DNA of 64,000 nucleotides from Baekduia alba (GTDB taxonomy: Bacteria > Actinomycetota > Thermoleophilia > Solirubrobacterales > Solirubrobacteraceae): assembly GCF_028416635.1 (NCBI RefSeq), contig NZ_CP114013.1:5518001-5582000 (forward strand), read 5' to 3'. Below, one piece after another: positions 19,093-29,808 of the stretch (the first letter of the stretch is position 1; each line of letters begins with the position of its first letter). Position numbers and translations under genes: made by a program. The notes under the pieces were generated by a model. That model was not told where the DNA came from. It made no database searches and saw nothing but the letters and a program-made list of their open reading frames with translations.

Positions 19093-20610
19093 ATGAGCAC
19101 GACGATCGACGTGTCCGGGACGCCTGCCGCCGCAGCCGCGTCCGCCAGCGCAGCGGCCCGCGGTCGTCGAGGCCGCTGGATCGACCAGTGGGAGCCGGAG
19201 GACGAGCGCTTCTGGGCGGCCACGGGCCAGCGCATCGCACGCAAGAACCTGCTCTGGTCGGTCTTCGCCGAGCACCTCGGCTTCTGCATCTGGTCGATCT
19301 GGGCGATCGTCGTCATCAACCTGGTCAACGTCGGGATCGCGCTCTCGGTGCCCGAGCAGTTCTGGCTGACGGCGACGCCGAACTTGATCGGCTCGGCCCT
19401 TCGCATCCCCTACACCTTCGCGCTGCCGCGCTTCGGCGGCCGCCTGTGGACGCTCGTCAGCGCGCTGCTGCTGCTGATCCCGACGGCGCTGCTGGCGTTC
19501 CTGGTGCCCAGCGGTTGGCTGGCCGATCAGCCGCACTCCACGCAGATGGCGGTCCTGCTCGGGTGCGCGGCCACGGCCGGCGTCGGCGGCGGCAACTTCT
19601 CGTCGTCGATGGCCAACATCTCGTTCTTCTACCCGGACGGCAAGAAGGGCTTCGCGCTGGGTCTGAACGCCGCGGGCGGAAACCTCGGCGTGGCGCTCAC
19701 CCAGCTCGTCGTCCCGCTGGTCATCATCGTCGGCGTCTCGGGCGCGGTCGTCAAGCTGCCGGTCCACCCGGTGCACCTGGGCTACGCGGGCCTGCTGTTC
19801 ATGCCGTTCATCGCGCTGGCCGCGGTCGGCGCCTGGCGGTACATGGACAGCCTGACGCAGGCGCGGACCGACACCACCGCCTACCGGCAGGCGATCCGCC
19901 AGCCGCAGACGTGGGTCATGTCGATGCTCTACATCGGGACGTTCGGCTCGTTCATCGGGTACTCGTTCGCCTTGCCGTTGGTCATCAAGAACACGTTCCC
20001 GGAGTTCCTGGCCGGGCATCCGTTCATCGCGACCTACCTCGCGGGCCTCGGCTTCGCCGGCGCGCTGGTCGGCTCGCTGGCCCGTCCGCTGGGCGGCCTG
20101 CTCTCGGACCGCATCGGCGGTGCGCGCGTGACGCTGACGGCGTTCCTCGGGATGGGCGCGTGCACGCTGGTGGCGATCGCGGGGGTCAACGCCCACTCGT
20201 TCGCGACGTTCTTCGGCGCCTACATGATCATCTTCCTGCTGGCCGGCGTCGGCAACGGCTCGACGTACCGGATGATCCCCGCGATCTTCGCCGCGCTCGG
20301 CCGGCGCGCGGGCGACGGCAAGGACACCATGTTGTCGTTCAAGCGCCAGACCGCGGCGGTGATCGGCATCGCGGGAGCGGTCGGCGCGTTCGGCGGCTTC
20401 CTGATCCAGGTCGCCTTCCGCCAGGCCAGCCTCGACGTGTCGGCCCTCATGAAGGCGGCGAAGGACCCGGCCGAGAAGGCGTCGATCGCCGCGGCGCACC
20501 AGGACTGGTCGGTCTCGGCGCTGTGGGTGTTCGTCGGCGCCTACGCCGTGTTCGCGGTCATGACGTACGTCGTCTACGTGCGCCGCGCCAGCCCGCTGAC
20601 CGGCGTCTAG
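19093..20610 (+). CDS. narK: nitrate/nitrite MFS transporter (NarK/NasA family)
   Basis: This 505-residue MFS carrier has both nitrate-porter signatures: TAGVGGGNFSSSMANISFFY near residue 160 and LLAGVGNGSTYRMIP near 385. The basic residues R (in LRIPYT) and R (in YRMIP) match the substrate arginines of NarK. An Ala/Ser-rich cytoplasmic tail of about 45 residues precedes helix 1. It brings nitrate in (or exchanges nitrate/nitrite) for the reductases encoded at 23804-30137. The start follows a hairpin whose loop holds the Shine-Dalgarno. Its TAG stop shares CTAG with the stop of the convergent TrpD-like gene. Upstream, GAAAC-N6-GCAAC at 19031-19046 is a possible half GlnR box. Confidence 0.93.
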   Translation: MSTTIDVSGTPAAAAASASAAARGRRGRWIDQWEPEDERFWAATGQRIARKNLLWSVFAEHLGFCIWSIWAIVVINLVNVGIALSVPEQFWLTATPNLIGSALRIPYTFALPRFGGRLWTLVSALLLLIPTALLAFLVPSGWLADQPHSTQMAVLLGCAATAGVGGGNFSSSMANISFFYPDGKKGFALGLNAAGGNLGVALTQLVVPLVIIVGVSGAVVKLPVHPVHLGYAGLLFMPFIALAAVGAWRYMDSLTQARTDTTAYRQAIRQPQTWVMSMLYIGTFGSFIGYSFALPLVIKNTFPEFLAGHPFIATYLAGLGFAGALVGSLARPLGGLLSDRIGGARVTLTAFLGMGACTLVAIAGVNAHSFATFFGAYMIIFLLAGVGNGSTYRMIPAIFAALGRRAGDGKDTMLSFKRQTAAVIGIAGAVGAFGGFLIQVAFRQASLDVSALMKAAKDPAEKASIAAAHQDWSVSALWVFVGAYAVFAVMTYVVYVRRASPLTGV

Positions 20611-21659
20611 CCGAGCAACGCGTCGAGCGTCGCCGCGGCCCGGCCGTCGTCCAGCACCGCCTCGCAGCGGCGCAGGGCGTCGGCCGGGTCGTTCGTCGTC
20701 CCCGCGGCGATCAGGCGGACCGCTCCGCTGAGCGCCACGGCCTGGCGCGCCGGACCGGCGTCCTCGCCACGCAGCACGGCACGCGTGAGGTCGGCCGCGA
20801 CCTCGGGGTCGGCGTCGCCGCGCAGGACGAGGCCGAGGCGCTCGGGCAGGTCGACGGCGCCACCCGCATGCGACAGCACCGCGACCGGCCGGCCGGGGCG
20901 CAGCACGTCGGAGCCCTCGACGCCGCGGATGGCGATCGCGCGGTCTGCACCCAGCCGCTCCAGCGCGCCGAGCAGCCGGCCCGCGTAGCTGCCGTGGGTG
21001 TGGCCGACGACGAAGCGCCGGGCGCCGAACCAGTCCACGAGCTTCTCGGCGCTGTGGATCGGGCCCCGCAGGCCGATCTCGTCGCGGGTCTTGGCCAGCG
21101 CCTCCCAGCCGGGCAGGGCCGCGCCGGCGTGCACCACCGAGACCCCCGCGCGCGCGAGCATCGCCTCGGACTCCGTGGGCGTCGGCCGCGCCGGACCGCC
21201 GAGCGCGCCGAGCACCTCGGCCACCGTGATGCCGTGCTTGGGACCGAGCCGGCCGCCGCAGCTCGTGACGACGGCCGCCCCGGCCGCGGCGGCGCACACC
21301 GCCGCCGCGAGCGAGAGCGGCGGCGCGTCGGCGACGCCGTCGAAGGCGCCGGCGCTCGCCACCAGCGGACGGTTGCCGGCCACCCCTTCGACGTGCAGCG
21401 GGGCCGCGCGGTCGCGCAGCGCCGCGGTGACCCCCGCCAGCTCCTCGGCGCCTTCGCCCTTGACGCGCAGTCCGATCAGGAACGCGCCCACCTGCGCCGG
21501 CGACACCTCGCCGGCGAGCAGCGCGGCCGTCGCCTCGCGCGCCTCGTCGAACGTCAGGTCGCGCGACCCGCGCGGGCCGGTCGCGACCGCCTTGATCATC
21601 GCGCGGAAGCCGGCGTAGCCTGCCCGCCCGCGCAGCGGCTGCGTGGCGCTCTCGGTCAT
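20607..21659 (-). CDS. TrpD-like (anthranilate phosphoribosyltransferase family) protein, 350 aa
   Basis: The fold is that of the nucleoside phosphorylase/TrpD class: a helical N-domain with LLAGEVSPAQVGAFLIGLRV, then a Rossmann-like domain with SCGGRLGPKHGITVAEVLGA and AIRGVEGSDVLRPG. The catalytic PRPP loop of true TrpD (GTGGD, followed by NIST) is replaced by VASAGAFDG and PPLSLAA, so anthranilate transfer is unlikely. It resembles the TrpD2/YbiB side branch in that respect. It is the last gene of the glnA, glnR-like, trpD-like set, with an ATGA overlap with the regulator. There are no other trp genes here. A role tied to nitrogen control is suggested by position only. Confidence 0.75.
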   Translation of the reverse strand: MTESATQPLRGRAGYAGFRAMIKAVATGPRGSRDLTFDEAREATAALLAGEVSPAQVGAFLIGLRVKGEGAEELAGVTAALRDRAAPLHVEGVAGNRPLVASAGAFDGVADAPPLSLAAAVCAAAAGAAVVTSCGGRLGPKHGITVAEVLGALGGPARPTPTESEAMLARAGVSVVHAGAALPGWEALAKTRDEIGLRGPIHSAEKLVDWFGARRFVVGHTHGSYAGRLLGALERLGADRAIAIRGVEGSDVLRPGRPVAVLSHAGGAVDLPERLGLVLRGDADPEVAADLTRAVLRGEDAGPARQAVALSGAVRLIAAGTTNDPADALRRCEAVLDDGRAAATLDALLG

Positions 21660-22336
21660 CGTCCCTCTCCTTCGAAGCGGTAGCCGACGCTGCGCACGGT
21701 CTTGATCCGGCCGGCGTGCTCGGCCCCGAGCTTGGCGCGCACGCGGCGCACGTGGACGTCCACCGTGCGCGCGCCCCCGTAGTAGTCGAAGCCCCAGACG
21801 CGGCTCAGCAGCGCCTCGCGACCGAAGACGCGACCCGGATGGGTCACCAGGAACTTCAACAACTCGTACTCCATGTAGGTGAAGTCGATCGGCCGCGCGT
21901 CGATGGCGACCTGGTAGGTCGCGAGGTTGACCGCCAGCGACCCGACCCGCACGACGTTGTCGTCCGGGACGCCGTTGACGCGGCGGCGCGCGCGGGCGAT
22001 CCGGGCGCGCAGCTCGGCGGCGCGCAGCGGCAGGACGATCAGCTCGTGGCCCTCGTGGACTGCACCGCCGTGGTCGAGCTCGGCGCCGTCGATCGCGACG
22101 ACGACCGGCACGTCGCCGAGGTCCTCGTCGCCCTCGAGGCGCGCGCACAGCCCCGGGTCGCTCAGCACGAGCGCGAGGTCGGGCGGCCGCGGCGGCGCGC
22201 CGCCGTCGCCCTCGGGCCGCAGCGAGCCGTTGGCCGACACCTTGCGTGGCGCGAAGCCCAGCTCGGCGAGCAGCCGCGCGACGTCGGAGGCCACGTCGTC
22301 GACCGACTCGTCGGTGTAGATCCACGCCTCCGGCAT
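21656..22336 (-). CDS. glnR: GlnR-like OmpR-family nitrogen regulator, 226 aa
   Basis: Residues 130-225 are an OmpR/PhoB winged helix almost diagnostic for actinobacterial GlnR: FTYMEYELLKFLVTHPGRVF, then GREALLSRVWGFDYYGGART, then VDVHVRRVRAKLG and TVRSVGYRF. The N-terminal 120 residues form a divergent receiver with a few acidic residues but no normal D-D-T/K set, as in GlnR, which works without phosphorylation. It lies 12 nt after glnA and overlaps the TrpD-like gene. A four-half-site GlnR box is present between glnA and the nitrate reductase gene. The likely role is activation of nitrate, nitrite and ammonium assimilation under nitrogen limitation. Confidence 0.85.
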   Translation of the reverse strand: MPEAWIYTDESVDDVASDVARLLAELGFAPRKVSANGSLRPEGDGGAPPRPPDLALVLSDPGLCARLEGDEDLGDVPVVVAIDGAELDHGGAVHEGHELIVLPLRAAELRARIARARRRVNGVPDDNVVRVGSLAVNLATYQVAIDARPIDFTYMEYELLKFLVTHPGRVFGREALLSRVWGFDYYGGARTVDVHVRRVRAKLGAEHAGRIKTVRSVGYRFEGEGR

Positions 22337-22348
22337 GTCGAGGCCTAC

Positions 22349-23656
22349 CTACAACAACCGTAGGAAGCGTTCCAGCTCCCAGGTCGAGACTGTGGCCTGG
22401 TAGGCGTCCCACTCCGCGCGCTTGTTGGCGACGACCAGGTCGACGACGCGGTCGCCGAGGGTCTCGCGCGCGAGGTCGGAGGACTCGAAGCGGTCGGTGG
22501 CCTCGCGCAGGTCGGCGGGGAGCTTTGGCGCGTCGACCGACGCGGCGTCGTCGCCGTTGGCCTCCGGGCCCAGCTGGTAGCCGCGCTCGATGCCGCGCAG
22601 GCCGGCGGCGAGCACGAGCGCCAGCGACAGGTACGGGTTGGCGCCGGGGTCCGGCGAGCGCAGCTCGATCCGCGTCGCCGTCTCCCGCGTCGGCCGCGAC
22701 GCGGGGACACGCACGAGACCCGCGCCACCGGTCCGCGTCCACTGCACGTGCCGCGGCGCCTCGAAGCCGTTCGCGAGCCGCTTGTAGGAGTTGACCCACT
22801 GGTTGGTCAGCAGCGTCAGCTCGCCGGCGTGGGCGAGGATCCCGGCCAGGAAGCGCCGGCCCTGCGGCGACAGCGGTGTGCTCGGGTCCGGGTCGTGGAA
22901 GACGTTGCGGTCGCCGTCGAAGAGGCTCAGGTGCAGGTGCATCCCGCTGCCCGCGTGCTCCTGCAGCGGCTTGGGCATGAAGGTGGCGAAGAGGCCCAGC
23001 TCCGACGCGACCTCCTTGACCGTGAGGCGGAACGTCGTGATCGCGTCGGCCATCGAGAGCGCGTCGGTGTGGGCGAGCTGGATCTCGTGCTGGCTGGGCG
23101 CCACCTCGTGGTGGCTGGCCTTGACCGGGATGCCGAGGTGCTCGAGGTGGTCGATCGTCCGGCGGCGGAAGTCCGAGCCCTCGTCGAGCGGCGTCAGGTC
23201 GAAGTAGGCGCCGTCGTCCAGCGGGCGCGGCACCGGGCTGTCGTCCTCGCCCGCGAAGAGGAAGAACTCGATCTCGGCGCCGACCTGGACGGTCCAGCCG
23301 AGGTCGGCGACCTGGGCCAGGACGCGCTGCAGCGCGTCGCGCGAGTCGGCCGGGAAGGCGCCTCCGTCGGGCTCGCGCACGGTGCAGAACATGCGGCCGA
23401 CCACCCCGTCGCGCCAGGGGAGCAGCGCGAACGTGGACGGGTCGGGGTAGGCGATGACGTCGCGCTCGCGGCGCCGGGCGGCGCCTTCGAGGCTCGAGCC
23501 GTCCAGGCCGACGCCGTCCTCGAGCACCTGCTCGAGCTCGGAGGCGGGGACGGCGAGCGATTTGAGGATGCCGAGGACGTCGACGAACCAGAGGCGGACG
23601 AAGCGGACGCCGCGCTCCTCGGCCGTGCGCAGCACGTATGTATCCCGTGGACCCAT
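22349..23656 (-). CDS. glnA: glutamine synthetase type I, 435 aa
   Basis: It carries the GSI signatures in order: VGLDGSSLEG near residue 50, GAEIEFFLF near 125 (metal-binding Glu), SHHEVAPSQHEIQLAHTDAL near 180, GSGMHLHLSLF near 235 (metal His), LTNQWVNSYKRLANGFEAP near 280, and RIELRSPDPGANPYLSLA near 345. The length fits the short GSI-alpha form, and the NLYDLPPEE-type adenylylation loop is not seen, so covalent control is unlikely. The enzyme makes glutamine from glutamate, ammonia and ATP, trapping the product of NirBD. It is the first gene of a minus-strand set with the GlnR-like regulator and faces the nitrate reductase gene divergently. Confidence 0.93.
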   Translation of the reverse strand: MGPRDTYVLRTAEERGVRFVRLWFVDVLGILKSLAVPASELEQVLEDGVGLDGSSLEGAARRRERDVIAYPDPSTFALLPWRDGVVGRMFCTVREPDGGAFPADSRDALQRVLAQVADLGWTVQVGAEIEFFLFAGEDDSPVPRPLDDGAYFDLTPLDEGSDFRRRTIDHLEHLGIPVKASHHEVAPSQHEIQLAHTDALSMADAITTFRLTVKEVASELGLFATFMPKPLQEHAGSGMHLHLSLFDGDRNVFHDPDPSTPLSPQGRRFLAGILAHAGELTLLTNQWVNSYKRLANGFEAPRHVQWTRTGGAGLVRVPASRPTRETATRIELRSPDPGANPYLSLALVLAAGLRGIERGYQLGPEANGDDAASVDAPKLPADLREATDRFESSDLARETLGDRVVDLVVANKRAEWDAYQATVSTWELERFLRLL

Positions 23657-23740
23657 GCGGTGTCAGAGACGGTGGCAGCGATGTGGCGCGTGCACATCCT
23701 CCGCGAGGTCGGAACTCGTTCGCCGACCGGTCGAGCGGAC

Positions 23741-23778
23741 GACACCAAGCCGAAACAAAGCCGTCGCGGAAGGGAAAC
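23741..23778. promoter_or_regulatory. candidate GlnR box
   Basis: Four pentamers lie at exact 11-bp steps: GACAC (23741), GAAAC (23752), GTCGC (23763) and GAAAC (23774), each followed by six bases. The known actinobacterial GlnR box is gTnAC-N6-GaAAC repeated twice; both b-sites are exact and each a-site has one mismatch. It lies between glnA (start 23656) and the nitrate reductase (start about 23804), next to a GlnR-like gene, so one box could serve both directions. Confidence 0.7.
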
Positions 23779-23803
23779 GGTCGGGCCGCACCATCCCTGC
23801 CGC

Positions 23804-26800
23804 GTGCCCGGCCCGACATCCACGTCCACCCTGTGCCCGTATTGCGGGACCGGCTGCGGCCTCTCGGTCGACGTCGAGGGCGGGCGGGTGCGGGGCGTCG
23901 CGGGCGACGCGCGCCATCCGGTCAACCGTGGGCGGACGTGCCGCAAGCCGCTGGAGCTGGGATCTGCGGTTCACGCCGCCGACCGGCCGACGACGCCGCT
24001 GGTCCGGGCGTCCCGCGACCTGCCGTTCGCCTCGACGTCCTGGGACGACGCCATCGACGGGGTCGCGGCGCGGCTGCGCGCGATCGTGGACGAGTCGGGG
24101 CCGGACGCGATCGCGTTCTACGTCTCGGGCCAGCTGCTGACCGAGGACTACTACGCGGTCAACAAGCTGGCCAAGGGCTTCCTGGGCACCAACAACGTCG
24201 ACTCCAACTCGCGGCTGTGCATGTCCAGCGCGGTGGCGGGCTACACGGGCGCGTTCGGGGCCGACGGGCCGCCGCCCGCCTATGCGGACCTCGCGGCGGC
24301 CGACTGCCTGCTGCTGCTGGGGTCCAACACGGCGGCGTGCCACCCGATCGTGTGGTCGCGGATCCGGGACCGGCAGGCCGAGGGCGCGCGCGTGATCGTC
24401 GTCGACCCGCGCGCGACGCCGACGGCGATCGCCGCCGACCTGCACCTCGCGGTGCGGCCCGGGACCGACCTGCCGTTGTTGAACGCCATGCTCTGCGTGC
24501 TGGAGCGCGACGGGCTGCTGGACCGCGACTTCATCGCGCGGCACACCAGCGGCTTCGACGCGACGATGGCGGTGGCGCGCGCGTGGCCGGTGGAGCGCGC
24601 CGCGCAGGCGTGCGGCGTCGCGGCGGCCGACATCGAGCGCGCCGCGGAGTGGTTCGGCGCGGCGGGTGCGGCGATGACCCTGTGGTCGATGGGCGCCAAC
24701 CAGTCGGCCGTCGGGACGCTGAAGAACCGCGCGCTGATCAACCTCTGCCTGGCCACCGGGAACCTGGGACGGCCGGGCTGCGGGCCGCTCTCACTGACCG
24801 GGCAGCCCAACGCGATGGGCGGCCGGGAAGTTGGTGGGCTCGCCCACCTGCTGCCGGGCTACCGACGCGTCGACGACGGCGTCGACCGCGCGGCGATGGA
24901 GGCGCACTGGGGGCTGGAGGCGGGCGCGCTCTCGGCGGTCCCGGGCCTGACGGCGACCGAGGTCGTCGACGCGCTGCTGGACGGACGCGTCCGCGCGGTG
25001 CTGGTGGCGGCGACCAACCCGGTGGTGTCGCTCCCCGACGGCGCACGGGTGCGCGAGGCCTTCGAGCGCTGCGAGCTGCTGGTCGTCCAGGACTGCCACC
25101 ACCCGACGGAGACCAGCGCGCTGGCGCACGTCGTCCTGCCGGCCGCGGCATGGCCCGAGAAGGAAGGCTCGATGACGTCGTCGGAGCGGCGCGTCGGGCT
25201 CGTGCGCAAGCTGCTCGACGCACCCGGCGAGGCGCGCCCGGACTGGCAGATCTACGCGGGGCTGGCCCGAGCCCTCGGGTTCGGCGACGCGTTCGCATGG
25301 CCCGACGCGGCCGCGGTCTACGACGAGTTCGCAGCGACCACGGCGGGGCGGCCCTGTGACGTCAGCGGCGTCTCGCACGCGCGGCTGCGACGCGAGGGCT
25401 CGGTGCAGTGGCCGGCCCCGGCGGCGCTCGTCGCGGGCGCGACCGCGGACGGCACCGTGCGGCTGTACGAGGATCGGCGGCCGCCGACGCCGGACCGGCG
25501 CGCACGGTTCGGGCCCGCGCCGCACAGCGCGCCGGCCGACGCGCCGGACCCCGAGTTCCCCATGACCTTGACCACCGGGCGCGTCGCCGACCAGTGGCAC
25601 ACCATGAGCCGCACGGGCAAGTCCTCCGCCTTGCGCGCGGCCGCCGGCGTCCCGACCCTGAGCGTCCACCCCGAGGACGGCAAGGCCTATGGGTTGGTCG
25701 ACGGCGACGACGTCCGGGTGCGCTCGCGCCGCCGCGGCGAGGTCGTCCTGCGCGCGGCGTTCGACGCCACGCTGCCGCGCGGCGTCGCCTTCGCGCCGTT
25801 CCACTGGGGCGCGGCACACGCACCAGCGGGTGCCGGCGCGGTGAACGCGGTCAGCCACGCCACGGTCGACCCGACGTCGAAGCAGCCGGAGCTGAAGGCC
25901 ATGGCGGTCGCGCTGGAGCCGGCGCGTGGGCGGGCGGCGCGGCGGGGCGCGGATGGACCACGGCGCCGGCTCGTCGTCGTCGGCACCGGCATGGCGGCGC
26001 TCGCCACCGTCGAGGAGGTCCTGCGGCGCGATCCGGACGGCTGGCGGATCACCATGCTCGGCGAGGAGCCTGGGCCCGTATACAACCGCATCATGTTGTC
26101 CAAGCTGCTCGCGGGCGAGTGCGGGCCCGGCGACCTGGAGGTCAAGCCGCTGGCCTGGTACGCGCAGCGCGGGATCGACCTGCGCGGCGACTGCCCGGCG
26201 GTCGCGATCGACACCACCAACAAGGTGGTGCGCGACCTCGCGGGAGGCGCGCATCGTTACGACACGCTGGTGGTCGCGACGGGCTCGCGCGCGTTCGTCC
26301 CGCCGCTGGCCGGCGCCGACCTCCCGCACGTCGGCGTCTTCCGGACCTGGGCGGACGTCGCCGCGCTGTCGGGGACGCCGGTGGCGGGCCGGCGCGCGGT
26401 CGTCCTCGGCGGCGGCCTGCTGGGCCTGGAGGCGGCCGCCGGCCTGCACGCGCGCGGCGCCCGCGTCACGGTGGTCGAGCCCGCGCCGCGGCTGATGGGG
26501 CGCCAGCTCGACGACGCCTCGGCGTCGATGCTCGGCGCCGCCCTGCGCGCCCGCGGAATCGCGCTGCGCGTGGGCGTCCTGCCGGAGCGGATCACGCCGG
26601 ACGCGGTGGTCCTCGACGGCGGCGACGCCACGCCGCTGCCCGCCGACCTCGTCGTCGTCGCCGCCGGCGTGCGCCCGGAGACGACGCTCGCCCGTGAGGC
26701 CGGGCTGCCCGTCGCGCGCGGCATCGTCGTCGACGACGCGCTGCGCGCCGGCGCGCCTGGGGTCTTCGCCGTCGGCGAGTGCGCCGAGCACCAAGGCATG

Positions 26801-27397
26801 GTGTACGGGTTGTGGGCGCCGCTGGCCGAGCAGGCGCGCGTGGCGGGCGCGACGATCGCCGGCGACCCCGCCGCGTTCCACCCGCAGACGACCGCGACGG
26901 TCCTGAAGGTCGCGGGGGTCGACGTCTACGCCGGCGGCGTCGCGCAGCCCGAGGACCACCATGACGAGGTCACGCTGCGCGACACCCGCAGCGGCCGCTA
27001 CCGCAAGCTCGTCCTGGACGGCGACCGGCTCGTCGGCGCGATCCTCGTCGGCGACGTCGCCGACGCCCGCCGGTGCAGCGCGGCGTTGCGCTCGCACGAC
27101 CCGACCGACGCGGCGCTGATCGACGCCGGCTTCGGCGCCGTCGGGGCCGAGGCCCCGCCGCCCGCACCGGACGCCACGATCTGCTCCTGCAACGCGGTCA
27201 CCGCCGGCGCGATCGACCGGGCGATCGCCGCGCGCGGGCTGACGACCGTGGCCGGCGTGGCGAAGGCCACGCGCGCCTCGACCGGCTGCGGCGGGTGTGC
27301 CGGCGAGGTCCGGGCGATCCTCGAGCGGCACCGTTCATCGGCCCGAAACACGAGCGACTCGGAGCGGCAACCGCCATCGCCGACCATCGCGGCATGA
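23804..27397 (+). CDS. nasA: fused assimilatory nitrate reductase with FAD/NADH reductase and BFD domain, about 1197 aa
   Basis: Residues 8-45 hold a [4Fe-4S] site (CPYCGTGC, then C 27 residues on). Residues 50-705 are a Mo-bisPGD oxidoreductase of the assimilatory nitrate reductase type, with Cys about 139 (SNSRLCMSSA) as Mo ligand and the C-terminal molybdopterin-binding domain (VADQWHTMSRTGKSS). Residues 720-1090 are an FAD/NAD(P)H disulfide-reductase module like the front of NirB (VVVGTGMAALATVEEVL; VVLGGGLLGLEAAAGL). Residues 1125-1175 are a BFD [2Fe-2S] domain (CSCNAV...CGGC). One chain could take electrons from NAD(P)H to nitrate. The frame is open far upstream. GTG 23804 is chosen because it lies just past the GlnR box and before the Fe-S motif; ATG 23681 is the alternative. 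It overlaps nirB by ATGA. Confidence 0.9.
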   Translation: MPGPTSTSTLCPYCGTGCGLSVDVEGGRVRGVAGDARHPVNRGRTCRKPLELGSAVHAADRPTTPLVRASRDLPFASTSWDDAIDGVAARLRAIVDESGPDAIAFYVSGQLLTEDYYAVNKLAKGFLGTNNVDSNSRLCMSSAVAGYTGAFGADGPPPAYADLAAADCLLLLGSNTAACHPIVWSRIRDRQAEGARVIVVDPRATPTAIAADLHLAVRPGTDLPLLNAMLCVLERDGLLDRDFIARHTSGFDATMAVARAWPVERAAQACGVAAADIERAAEWFGAAGAAMTLWSMGANQSAVGTLKNRALINLCLATGNLGRPGCGPLSLTGQPNAMGGREVGGLAHLLPGYRRVDDGVDRAAMEAHWGLEAGALSAVPGLTATEVVDALLDGRVRAVLVAATNPVVSLPDGARVREAFERCELLVVQDCHHPTETSALAHVVLPAAAWPEKEGSMTSSERRVGLVRKLLDAPGEARPDWQIYAGLARALGFGDAFAWPDAAAVYDEFAATTAGRPCDVSGVSHARLRREGSVQWPAPAALVAGATADGTVRLYEDRRPPTPDRRARFGPAPHSAPADAPDPEFPMTLTTGRVADQWHTMSRTGKSSALRAAAGVPTLSVHPEDGKAYGLVDGDDVRVRSRRRGEVVLRAAFDATLPRGVAFAPFHWGAAHAPAGAGAVNAVSHATVDPTSKQPELKAMAVALEPARGRAARRGADGPRRRLVVVGTGMAALATVEEVLRRDPDGWRITMLGEEPGPVYNRIMLSKLLAGECGPGDLEVKPLAWYAQRGIDLRGDCPAVAIDTTNKVVRDLAGGAHRYDTLVVATGSRAFVPPLAGADLPHVGVFRTWADVAALSGTPVAGRRAVVLGGGLLGLEAAAGLHARGARVTVVEPAPRLMGRQLDDASASMLGAALRARGIALRVGVLPERITPDAVVLDGGDATPLPADLVVVAAGVRPETTLAREAGLPVARGIVVDDALRAGAPGVFAVGECAEHQGMVYGLWAPLAEQARVAGATIAGDPAAFHPQTTATVLKVAGVDVYAGGVAQPEDHHDEVTLRDTRSGRYRKLVLDGDRLVGAILVGDVADARRCSAALRSHDPTDAALIDAGFGAVGAEAPPPAPDATICSCNAVTAGAIDRAIAARGLTTVAGVAKATRASTGCGGCAGEVRAILERHRSSARNTSDSERQPPSPTIAA

Positions 27398-29808
27398 GCC
27401 TGAACCCCTCCGACGCGGGCGTCGTCGTGATCGGCGGCGGCATCGCGGGCCTGGCGGTCTGCGAGGCGGTCCGCGAGCGCGACGCGCTCGTCCCGGTGAC
27501 GCTGATCTGCGCCGAGCCGCGCCTTCCGTACGACCGCGTCCGCCTGTCCGAGATCCTCGTCTCGGGCGCGTCGGCCGAGACGCTCCAGCTGCGGCCCGCG
27601 GAGTGGTTCGAGGACCAGCACGTCACGGTCGTCACCGACGCCTGGGTCGCGCAGGTGGACGCCCGCGCCCGCACGATCGCGCTGGCCGACGGCGGTCCGA
27701 CCATCACCTACACCTCGCTCGTCCTCGCCACCGGCTCCAACGCGCTGCTGCCCCCGATCCCGGGGATCGACCAACCCCATGTCCATGCCTTCCGTGGACC
27801 CGAGGACTGCGACCGCATCCGCGAGGCCGCGGTCTCCGCGCGCCGCGCCGCGGTGATCGGCGGCGGCCTGCTCGGGCTGGAGGCCGCGCGCGGGATCGCG
27901 TCCCAGGGCTGCGCCGTCACGGTCGTCCACCTCATGGACCGCCTGATGGAGCGCCAGCTCGACGCCGGCTCGGCCGGCCTGCTCCAGGACACGCTCGCGA
28001 TGGACGTCGAGCTCAACCGCCAGACGGCGGAGATCGCGCCCGACCACCTGCGCTTCGCCGACGGCGACGAGCTGGAGGCCGATCTGGTCGTCGTCTCGAT
28101 CGGCATCGCGCCCGAGACGACGCTGGCCCGTGCGGCCGGCGCGACCGTCAACCGCGGAGTCGTCGTCGACGACGCGCTGCGGACCTCGCTCCCCGACGTC
28201 TACGCCGTCGGCGAGTGCGCCGAGCACCGCGGTCGCGTCCACGGGCTCGTCGCGCCCATCCTCGAGCAGGCACGCGTCGCCGCCGCGGCCCTGACCGGCG
28301 ACGGCGCCGCCGCCTACGCCGGCACGATCCCGAGCACCAAGCTGAAGGTCGCCGGCGTCGACCTCTTCACCGTCGGGGATGCCGAGGGCGACGGCCAGGC
28401 GGTCGCGATGGACGCCGCCGACGGCGTCTACCGCAAGCTCGCGACGCGCGACGGCGCCGCCTGTGGCGCGATCCTGCTCGGCGACCTGCGCGGCGCCGAG
28501 GCGCTGTCGACGCTCGTGCGCCGCGGCGAGCGCGTCGCGGACGCGCTGGCCGCGCTTGCCGCGTCGCTCGAGGCCGGCCCGGCCGAGATGGCCGACGAGG
28601 TCCAGGTCTGCAACTGCAACGGCGTCTGCAAGGGCGACATCATGGCCGCGGTGACCGAGCGCGGCGCGACGACGCCCCGCGAGGTGATGGCCATGACGCG
28701 CGCCGGCACCGGCTGCGGCTCGTGCAAGGCGCTGGTGGTCGACATCGTGGCGCTGGCGGCCGGCGGCGAGGTCGCCGACGAGCCGCATTACCTCTGCCCG
28801 TGCAAGCAGCAGACGCGCGAGGACCTGGCGGCGCTGATCCGCGCGGACGGGCTGGAGTCCGTCAGCGACGTCTCGCGCGCGTGCGGCACCGGCCGCGAGT
28901 GCGGCGCGTGCAAGCCGGCCCTCGCCTACCTGGTCAGCGAGATCAACGCCAACCGCCACCGCGAGGAGCGCGACGCGCGGTTCATCAACGACCGCGTCCA
29001 CGGCAACATCCAGAAGGACGGCACGTTCTCGGTCGTGCCGCGGATGCACGGCGGCGTCACGACGCCCGCCGAGCTGCGCCGGATCGCCGACGTCGCCGAG
29101 AAGTACGACATCCCGCTGGTGAAGGTCACCGGCGGCCAGCGCCTCGACCTGCTCGGCGTGCGCAAGCAGGACCTGCCGAAGGTCTGGGAGGAGCTCGGGA
29201 TGCCGTCCGGGCACGCGTACGCGAAGGCGGTCCGCACGGTCAAGACCTGCGTGGGGTCGGACTTCTGCCGCTTCGGGCTGGCCGACTCGATGGGGCTCGG
29301 CGTCGAGATCGAGCGCGAGTGGGAAGGGCTGCACACGCCGGCGAAGGTGAAGTCCGGCGTCTCGGGCTGCGCGCGCAACTGCGCCGAGGCGACGATCAAG
29401 GACATCGGGTTGGTCGCCGTCGGCGACGACCAGTGGCAGGTCCGGGTCGGCGGCGCCGCCGGGGGCAGCGTCCGCGAGGCCGACGTGCTGTGCACGGTCG
29501 ACTCCCGCGCCGAGGCGCTGCGCGTCTCCACCACGTTCCTCCAGTACTACCGCGAGAACGCGGACTTCAAGGAGCGCACCTATGACTTCGTCCCGCGCGT
29601 CGGCCTCGACGCGATCCGCGCGGCGGTGACCGATCCGGCGACCGGCGCGGCGCTGCGCGAGCGCTTCCGCCTGGCGAAGGCCGCCGCGACCGACCCATGG
29701 CTCGAGCGCCGGGAGCCCTACCACCCGCACCAGTTCACCAATCCCGACGACGAGGACGGCGCGGCGCGGCCCGCGCTCGTCGGCCCGCCCACCGGAGGAG
29801 CCCGATGA
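27394..29808 (+). CDS. nirB: assimilatory nitrite reductase [NAD(P)H], large subunit
   Basis: 804 residues. Residues 5-390 are the FAD/NAD(P)H module (GVVVIGGGIAGLAVCEAV; AAVIGGGLLGLEAARGIA; VYAVGECAEHRG). Two BFD-like [2Fe-2S] segments follow, near 405-455 (CNCNGVCKGD...CGSC) and 468-525 (CPCKQQ...CGAC). The sulfite/nitrite-reductase ferredoxin-like and siroheme domains come next, with the siroheme-[4Fe-4S] ligands TCVGSDFC and SGCARNC near 618 and 660. It reduces nitrite to ammonium using NAD(P)H. The start overlaps the stop of the nitrate reductase (ATGA) and its stop overlaps nirD (ATGA), so the three genes form one operon. The first 400 residues are clearly homologous to residues 720-1100 of the preceding protein. 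Confidence 0.95.
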   Translation: MSLNPSDAGVVVIGGGIAGLAVCEAVRERDALVPVTLICAEPRLPYDRVRLSEILVSGASAETLQLRPAEWFEDQHVTVVTDAWVAQVDARARTIALADGGPTITYTSLVLATGSNALLPPIPGIDQPHVHAFRGPEDCDRIREAAVSARRAAVIGGGLLGLEAARGIASQGCAVTVVHLMDRLMERQLDAGSAGLLQDTLAMDVELNRQTAEIAPDHLRFADGDELEADLVVVSIGIAPETTLARAAGATVNRGVVVDDALRTSLPDVYAVGECAEHRGRVHGLVAPILEQARVAAAALTGDGAAAYAGTIPSTKLKVAGVDLFTVGDAEGDGQAVAMDAADGVYRKLATRDGAACGAILLGDLRGAEALSTLVRRGERVADALAALAASLEAGPAEMADEVQVCNCNGVCKGDIMAAVTERGATTPREVMAMTRAGTGCGSCKALVVDIVALAAGGEVADEPHYLCPCKQQTREDLAALIRADGLESVSDVSRACGTGRECGACKPALAYLVSEINANRHREERDARFINDRVHGNIQKDGTFSVVPRMHGGVTTPAELRRIADVAEKYDIPLVKVTGGQRLDLLGVRKQDLPKVWEELGMPSGHAYAKAVRTVKTCVGSDFCRFGLADSMGLGVEIEREWEGLHTPAKVKSGVSGCARNCAEATIKDIGLVAVGDDQWQVRVGGAAGGSVREADVLCTVDSRAEALRVSTTFLQYYRENADFKERTYDFVPRVGLDAIRAAVTDPATGAALRERFRLAKAAATDPWLERREPYHPHQFTNPDDEDGAARPALVGPPTGGAR

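What the first reader, a model, noticed from the sequence alone, without database searches (positions are those of the whole stretch)
20607..21659. TrpD-like protein without the PRPP loop in a glnA-glnR operon
The gene is translationally coupled to the GlnR-like regulator. The GTGGD and NIST segments needed for anthranilate phosphoribosyl transfer are missing while the rest of the fold is retained. A link between a TrpD2-like protein and nitrogen control would be a new function.
Basis: partly seen in the sequence, partly recalled or inferred. Interest (0 to 1): 0.7.

Follow-up and report, generated by a model that had tools for sequence, protein, structure and literature searches.

The report
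TrpD-like partner of nitrate assimilation genes
A protein built like the tryptophan-pathway enzyme TrpD, but with a rebuilt active site, is tied in many unrelated bacteria to the genes that turn nitrate into ammonium, so it most likely helps to control or run nitrate use rather than to make tryptophan.

Summary
Window 20607-21659(-) encodes a 350-aa protein with the TrpD fold (AF2 pLDDT 83; VIA Z 37 to TrpD 1v8g) that starts inside the stop codon of a GlnR-type regulator (ATGA overlap) behind a second glnA. GTGGD/NIST are gone, but not simply lost: they are replaced by a conserved set (AGxYDG, PKxG, EKL/V, EGSD/E) shared with relatives in a second actinobacterial family and in Paenibacillales.

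The operon belongs to nitrate assimilation. It is divergent from nasA-nirB and convergent with narK. All 17 loci found in its order keep the regulator next to the TrpD-like gene. All 10 genomes that carry it have NasA (p 2e-7). A four-half-site GlnR-box-like element lies upstream of nasA in 15/15 loci whose nasA abuts glnA-regulator, and in 0/11 others. TrpD-like genes also sit beside nasA/nirB or siroheme genes in Paenibacillales, a second actinobacterial family, Campylobacterota and some Proteobacteria. The genome has its own trpD in a trpG-trpD-trpC cluster.

Best reading: an accessory, probably regulatory, protein of nitrate assimilation, functionally like cyanobacterial CnaT. The link is therefore not wholly new. 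The nitrate-linked motif set and the GlnR-type coupling appear undescribed. Molecular activity is unproven.

The parts
20607..21659 (-). TrpD-like protein, 350 aa: N-terminal IKAVATGPRGSRDL motif, AGAFDG in place of GTGGD, LGPKHG in place of the S-S phosphate loop, AEKLVD in place of GPLTNP, EGSDV in place of DGLDE
21656..22336 (-). GlnR-type OmpR-family regulator; conserved DNA-binding domain, receiver domain without a conserved acidic phosphorylation pocket; stop overlaps the start of the TrpD-like gene (ATGA)
22349..23656 (-). second glutamine synthetase (GlnA-like, 435 aa), first gene of the operon
23741..23778 (+). predicted operator of four 11-bp-phased half-sites (GACAC-n6-GAAAC-n6-GTCGC-n6-GAAAC), GlnR-box-like, between divergent glnA and nasA
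23804..27397 (+). nasA: assimilatory nitrate reductase fused to an NAD(P)H/FAD reductase with a C-terminal BFD [2Fe-2S] domain
27394..29808 (+). nirB: nitrite reductase large subunit, start overlaps nasA stop
19093..20610 (+). narK-type nitrate/nitrite transporter, convergent with the TrpD-like gene (last bases overlap)

Best explanation
The protein is an accessory factor of nitrate assimilation that keeps the TrpD fold but has a rebuilt ligand pocket. Inferred working: the GlnR-type regulator upstream binds the four-half-site operator between glnA and nasA and drives both directions (glnA-regulator-TrpD-like, and nasA-nirB). The regulator's receiver domain has no conserved phosphorylation pocket. 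The TrpD-like protein, translationally coupled to it by the ATGA overlap, is proposed to bind a small anionic signal of nitrate/nitrogen status in its pocket and set the regulator's activity. Shown: the fold, the replaced and conserved pocket motifs, the gene overlap, the co-occurrence with NasA, the operator-like element and its restriction to loci with the regulator. Inferred: that the protein is a signal-binding regulator, that it acts on this regulator, and the nature of the ligand.
For: Regulator directly upstream in 17/17 loci of the order, and TrpD-like never found there without it. All 10 genomes with the gene have NasA, p = 2.4e-7. Operator-like element upstream of nasA in 15/15 loci with adjacent glnA-regulator and 0/11 without, and a single strict match in the whole genome. 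Regulator closest in the PDB to GlnR: DNA-binding domain 52% identical to 8hig/8hml, above other OmpR regulators. TrpD-like genes beside nasA/nirB in 13/20 Paenibacillales loci, 4/7 loci of a second actinobacterial family, Catenovulum and roseobacters. In Alphaproteobacteria the TrpD2 domain is fused to a LysR-type HTH, a direct precedent for a regulatory role of the fold. Cyanobacterial cnaT is reported as a positive element for nirA-operon expression (PMC9430850). Among 21 Paenibacillales copies all 14 next to nas genes keep the AGPYDG and PPKxG motifs, while the three that lost the Asp are not next to nas genes (p 0.026).
Against: No ligand, binding or expression data. In three NasA+ genomes glnA-regulator stands without the TrpD-like gene, so the regulator does not need it everywhere. 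In Campylobacterota and roseobacters the neighbours are siroheme genes as well, which fits a role in making or serving nitrite reductase equally well. That CnaT is a TrpD-like protein is my recollection; its sequence could not be fetched. The LysR fusions belong to another TrpD2 branch and sit next to siderophore transporters.
Confidence: 0.5

Rival explanations
1. A pathway enzyme or maturation factor for the nitrate/nitrite reductases: a TrpD-fold enzyme with a new pocket that makes or handles something for the molybdenum cofactor, for siroheme, or for the reductases themselves.
For: Gene order nirB-nirD-nasA-TrpD2-cysG in Sulfitobacter and Ponticoccus; cobA or cysG within about 4 kb of the TrpD2 gene in 11 of 18 Campylobacterota loci plus the first one; strictly conserved replacement motifs look like an active site; a fold that normally does chemistry.
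Against: 20 of about 30 NasA+ genomes of the order work without it. In the window's order it stays with the regulator and glnA even where nasA is elsewhere (Patulibacter). No siroheme gene was identified in the stretch read here (not searched through the whole window).
Confidence: 0.3
2. A nucleic-acid-binding TrpD2 protein working like E. coli YbiB.
For: Same fold and lack of the PRPP loop; YbiB is among the PDB sequence matches; TrpD2 proteins lack the PRPP motif and bind DNA (PMC9835598).
Against: The two YbiB arginines that bind DNA and ObgE (R92, R123) align to non-basic or variable positions in the window group. Score of the YbiB model is 111 bits against a cut-off of 185. Tree groups the window clade with TrpD and the other actinobacterial group rather than with YbiB, though YbiB's long branch makes its place unsure. 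Net charge is about -2, but YbiB itself is at -5, so net charge decides nothing.
Confidence: 0.12
3. An unusual but working anthranilate phosphoribosyltransferase or a phosphoribosyltransferase for another substrate.
For: Best structural matches are TrpD enzymes; several TrpD positions (R192/R198, D251) are kept.
Against: GTGGD, NIST, the phosphate-binding serines and the Mg-binding Glu are absent. A complete TrpD is present in a trp gene cluster. TrpD model score 101 bits against a cut-off of 199.
Confidence: 0.05

Closest known systems
CnaT of cyanobacteria (Anabaena all0601) and the cyanobacterial family PRK07394 (NCBIfam NF005635)
   Same: Best NCBIfam match of the window protein (144 bits); linked to nitrate assimilation; cnaT reported as a positive element of nirA-operon expression (PMC9430850).
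   Different: Window protein is far below the PRK07394 cut-off (144 against 287 bits). Cyanobacteria use NtcA/NtcB, not a GlnR-type regulator. That CnaT belongs to PRK07394 is inferred, not tested.
TrpD2 / YbiB (E. coli)
   Same: TrpD fold without the PRPP-binding motif.
   Different: YbiB arginines not conserved; different replacement motifs; YbiB is encoded with dinG in a LexA-controlled operon and binds DNA and ObgE.
PRK09071 'glycosyl transferase family protein' (Proteobacteria)
   Same: TrpD2 fold, directly behind nasA in Catenovulum, Sulfitobacter and Ponticoccus.
   Different: Lacks the AGxYDG / PKxG / EK motifs; separate, well supported clade that also holds the LysR-HTH fusions.
Anthranilate phosphoribosyltransferase TrpD
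   Same: Whole fold, Z 37 over 319 residues to 1v8g.
   Different: PRPP loops and trp gene context absent.
GlnR of actinobacteria (for the upstream regulator)
   Same: DNA-binding domain 52% identical; 11-bp-phased operator-like element of the GlnR-box type next to nasA and glnA.
   Different: No conserved acidic pocket in the receiver domain, and it is encoded in the cluster it is predicted to control.

Membership tests
TrpD (anthranilate phosphoribosyltransferase) | TrpD fold (helical N-terminal and a/b domain) | tested here: met
   Pfam PF02885 and PF00591 above cut-off; Z 37.0, rmsd 2.2 over 319 residues to 1v8g
TrpD (anthranilate phosphoribosyltransferase) | GTGGD loop, N-I/V-S-T, phosphate-binding serines, DE pair for Mg | tested here: not met
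   AGAFDG, PPLSL, LGPKHG, GSDV at those places; functions of the motifs from PMC9835598
TrpD (anthranilate phosphoribosyltransferase) | trp gene context | tested here: not met
   the genome's own trpD is in trpG-trpD-trpC
TrpD2 / YbiB | TrpD fold lacking the PRPP motif | tested here: met
TrpD2 / YbiB | score above the YbiB model cut-off (NF006005, 185 bits) | tested here: not met
   111.3 bits
TrpD2 / YbiB | conserved Arg92 and Arg123 of the nucleic-acid groove | tested here: not met
   positions identified by counting on the alignment; non-basic or variable residues in the window group
TrpD2 / YbiB | nucleic-acid binding | not testable with these tools
   needs purified protein
CnaT / PRK07394 | score above the PRK07394 cut-off (287 bits) | tested here: not met
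   144.3 bits, though it is the best of all NCBIfam models
CnaT / PRK07394 | linkage to nitrate-assimilation genes | tested here: met
   cyanobacterial linkage from PMC9430850 and PMC10161378
CnaT / PRK07394 | sequence match to Anabaena All0601 | not tested
   no cyanobacterial sequence could be fetched; one control genome passes the PRK07394 cut-off, by inference Synechococcus elongatus
PRK09071 glycosyl transferase family protein | score above its cut-off (257 bits) and clade membership | tested here: not met
   110 bits; separate clade in the tree
GlnR (upstream regulator) | GlnR-type OmpR DNA-binding domain | tested here: met
   top three PDB sequence matches are GlnR; 52% identity over 98 residues
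GlnR (upstream regulator) | GlnR-box-like site near nas/glnA | tested here: met
   16 of 18 defined bases in the window, 15/15 against 0/11 loci; consensus itself from memory

The most novel reading that the evidence does not exclude
A cross-phylum family of TrpD-fold proteins with its own pocket (GTGxRGSR, AGxYDG, PKxG, EKL/V, EGSD/E) serves nitrate assimilation in Actinomycetota, Bacillota, Campylobacterota and cyanobacteria, by sensing or making a still unknown phosphorylated or anionic signal. In Solirubrobacterales it is the missing signal input of a GlnR-type regulator that has lost phosphorylation.
Probability: 0.35. Interest if true: 0.8.

Novelty: new variant of a known kind. Interest (0 to 1): 0.56.

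Why it matters
Proteins annotated as TrpD or 'glycosyl transferase' turn out to travel with nitrate-reduction genes across phyla, so many database names are misleading and a common factor of nitrate assimilation may have been overlooked outside cyanobacteria. How GlnR-type regulators, which lack ordinary phosphorylation control, receive their signal is an open question, and this operon offers a physically coupled candidate. The conserved replacement motifs give direct targets for mutation and ligand screens.

Tried and rejected
Plain TrpD moonlighting: rejected on the missing PRPP motifs and the separate trpD. Pseudogene or decaying paralogue: rejected, since motifs and operon are conserved over 54-75% identity. 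YbiB-type DNA binder as default: not favoured, see the arginines. YbiB was not among the 50 structure matches shown, which says nothing about the fold. A single nitrate-TrpD2 clade including Proteobacteria: not supported by the tree, which puts PRK09071 and LysR fusions apart and the window clade nearer to TrpD (deep branches weak). Sigma-70 promoters and intrinsic terminators in 20500-24000: none found, uninformative at this G+C. CnaT and cyanobacterial nirB papers (PMC180997, PMC2876489) and the YbiB paper (PMC4528117) are not held. Attempts to reach a cyanobacterial homologue through plasmid records failed. A strict GlnR-box search of the genome found only this site, so no wider regulon can be claimed.

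Full report
WHAT IS THERE. The window lies at 5518001-5582000 of a 5.86-Mb single-contig genome; its orthologues come from Solirubrobacteraceae and kin such as Conexibacter, Patulibacter and Svornostia. On the minus strand, 23656 to 20607, are a 435-aa glutamine synthetase, a 226-aa OmpR-family regulator and a 350-aa TrpD-like protein. Regulator and TrpD-like gene overlap by ATGA. On the plus strand, narK (19093-20610) converges on the TrpD-like gene, and nasA (23804-27397) diverges from glnA, followed by nirB (27394-29808), again with an overlapping start. The finding therefore sits in the middle of a nitrate-assimilation cluster.

THE PROTEIN. Both TrpD-fold Pfam domains pass their cut-offs. 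NCBIfam ranks the cyanobacterial PRK07394 first (144 bits), then YbiB (111), PRK09071 (110) and, lower, TrpD (101), all below their own cut-offs. The AF2 model from 16 sequences has mean pLDDT 83 and pTM 0.87 and matches TrpD structures over nearly the whole chain (1v8g: Z 37.0, 2.2 A, 319 residues). The genome's own trpD is elsewhere, between trpG and trpC, with TrpD motifs (AGTGGGRHTFNVST, GPLTNP, DGLDEMS).

REPLACED, NOT LOST. At the PRPP loop the window protein has AGAFDG; at the phosphate-binding serine loop LGPKHG; at GPLTNP AEKLVD; at DGLDE EGSDV (roles of the TrpD motifs from PMC9835598). The same replacements (AG-x-[FY]-DG or GGFDG, PK-x-G, EK-[LV], EGS-[DE]) occur in the TrpD-like proteins of a second actinobacterial family (f20) and of Paenibacillales. 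With Paenibacillaceae and Sulfurimonas aligned, D107, G108, K141, G143, E205, K206, H222, E248 and, near the N-terminus, I22, K23, T27, G28, R30, G31 and R33 are invariant. YbiB and the PRK09071 branch do not share this set. Among 21 Paenibacillales copies, all 14 next to nas genes keep D and K. The three that lost the Asp (L096, L097, L100) are not next to nas genes (Fisher p 0.026, a small sample).

CONTEXT IN ITS OWN ORDER. Among 121 genomes of the order, 10 hold an orthologue, the window's own included. About 30 hold NasA at 58% identity or more, clearly apart from other molybdopterin enzymes at 41% or less. All 10 are NasA-positive (hypergeometric p 2.4e-7). Over 17 distinct loci the regulator is always directly upstream, glnA precedes it wherever the contig reaches, and nasA is adjacent in 13 of 15 with enough sequence. 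In Patulibacter the trio stays together although nasA is about 16 kb away. Three NasA+ genomes have glnA-regulator without the TrpD-like gene, and at least eight others have nirB-nasA, mostly with narK, and no trio in the stretch fetched. The TrpD-like gene is thus optional for nitrate use but was never seen there without the regulator.

THE REGULATOR AND ITS SITE. Its best PDB sequence matches are GlnR of Saccharopolyspora and Mycobacterium (8hig, 8hml, 8hih; 52% identity in the DNA-binding domain). The receiver half has no conserved acidic pocket, so phosphorylation is unlikely to be its input (inference). Between glnA and nasA lies GACACcaagccGAAACaaagccGTCGCggaaggGAAAC (23741-23778), four half-sites at 11-bp phase matching 16 of 18 defined bases of a double GlnR box, beyond all 100 shuffles (consensus from memory). 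The equivalent element (often GTTCAC-n5-GTTCAT-n5-cGACGc-n6-GGAAAC) is upstream of nasA in all 15 loci whose nasA abuts glnA-regulator and in none of 11 others (Fisher p 1.3e-7). The sites were first lined up by eye, so the leave-one-out scores are a check and not a blind discovery, and the 15 loci are related. A strict form occurs once in the whole genome.

OTHER LINEAGES. Paenibacillales: 13 of 20 sampled TrpD-like loci lie next to nasA and/or nirBD, in addition to the first one, where the TrpD-like gene precedes nasA. An earlier count said 14 of 20; the correct count is 13 of 20, or 14 of 21 with the first locus. Family f20: nasA with or without nirB next to the TrpD-like gene in 4 of 7 loci, some of the rest cut by contig ends. 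Roseobacters: nirB-nirD-nasA-TrpD2-cysG. Catenovulum: nasA-TrpD2 with cobA, nirB, nirD and narK nearby. Campylobacterota: siroheme genes cobA or cysG within about 4 kb in 11 of 18 loci and in the Sulfurimonas locus. Not all TrpD2 proteins are so placed: Acinetobacter's is not, and an alphaproteobacterial branch is fused to a LysR-type HTH, mostly next to siderophore transporters. The tree gives the window clade 100/100 and places it with f20 and TrpD (95/87), apart from PRK09071 plus fusions (100/100) and from YbiB. Deep branches are long, so whether nitrate association arose once or several times is open.

HOW IT PROBABLY WORKS. Two readings fit: a regulatory partner of the GlnR-type regulator (favoured, 0.5), or an enzyme/maturation factor for the reductases (0.3). 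For regulation speak the unbroken coupling to the regulator, the retention of the trio away from nasA, the HTH-TrpD2 fusions, and cyanobacterial cnaT, described as a positive regulatory element of nirA-operon expression (PMC9430850). For the enzyme reading speak the siroheme neighbours and the strict conservation of a pocket. That CnaT resembles anthranilate phosphoribosyltransferase is from memory; the held papers support it only indirectly (a gene annotated so flanks nrtABCD in freshwater Synechococcus, PMC10161378).

NOVELTY. The kind is known: TrpD-fold proteins without PRPP motif, and a cyanobacterial nitrate-assimilation factor. New here, as far as the held literature shows, are the shared replacement motifs across phyla, their association with nas genes, and the translational coupling to a GlnR-type regulator with its own operator-like element.

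Noticed in passing
L096 and L100 (also L087-L089, L091, L092, L094, L095, L070): In Paenibacillaceae the TrpD-like gene or its nas cluster sits beside the GTPase gene obg; in L096 and L100 it directly follows obg without nas genes and has lost part of the pocket motifs. E. coli YbiB binds ObgE (PMC10123104), so this adjacency may mean something.
   Followed up: partly
L074, L078, L079, L082 (and likely L076, L077, L081): LysR-type HTH fused to a TrpD2 domain (about 480 aa), mostly encoded next to or divergently from siderophore ABC transporters in Rhizobiales, Azospirillum and Sulfitobacter, and near a TonB receptor in Cereibacter; most are annotated merely as glycosyl transferase.
   Followed up: partly
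window 23804-27397: Nitrate reductase fused to a NirB-like NAD(P)H/FAD reductase with a C-terminal BFD [2Fe-2S] domain, a one-chain arrangement conserved in relatives.
   Followed up: partly
L071 9278-11397 and L132-L148: Campylobacterota carry a TrpD2 gene near cobA and the siroheme synthase N-domain gene; in several loci it lies between them.
   Followed up: partly
L064 3932-4768: A ModA-like molybdate-binding protein gene (judged by eye) lies about 3 kb upstream of the glnA-regulator-TrpD-like trio in Patulibacter minatonensis.
   Followed up: no
L058 (CAMCUD010000011.1): A contig titled Bifidobacterium breve MAG carries the Solirubrobacterales cluster at 60-73% identity; the organism name looks wrong.
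   Followed up: no
L001 1441-2478: The genome's own TrpD and its closest relatives have GTGGG instead of GTGGD in the PRPP loop.
   Followed up: no
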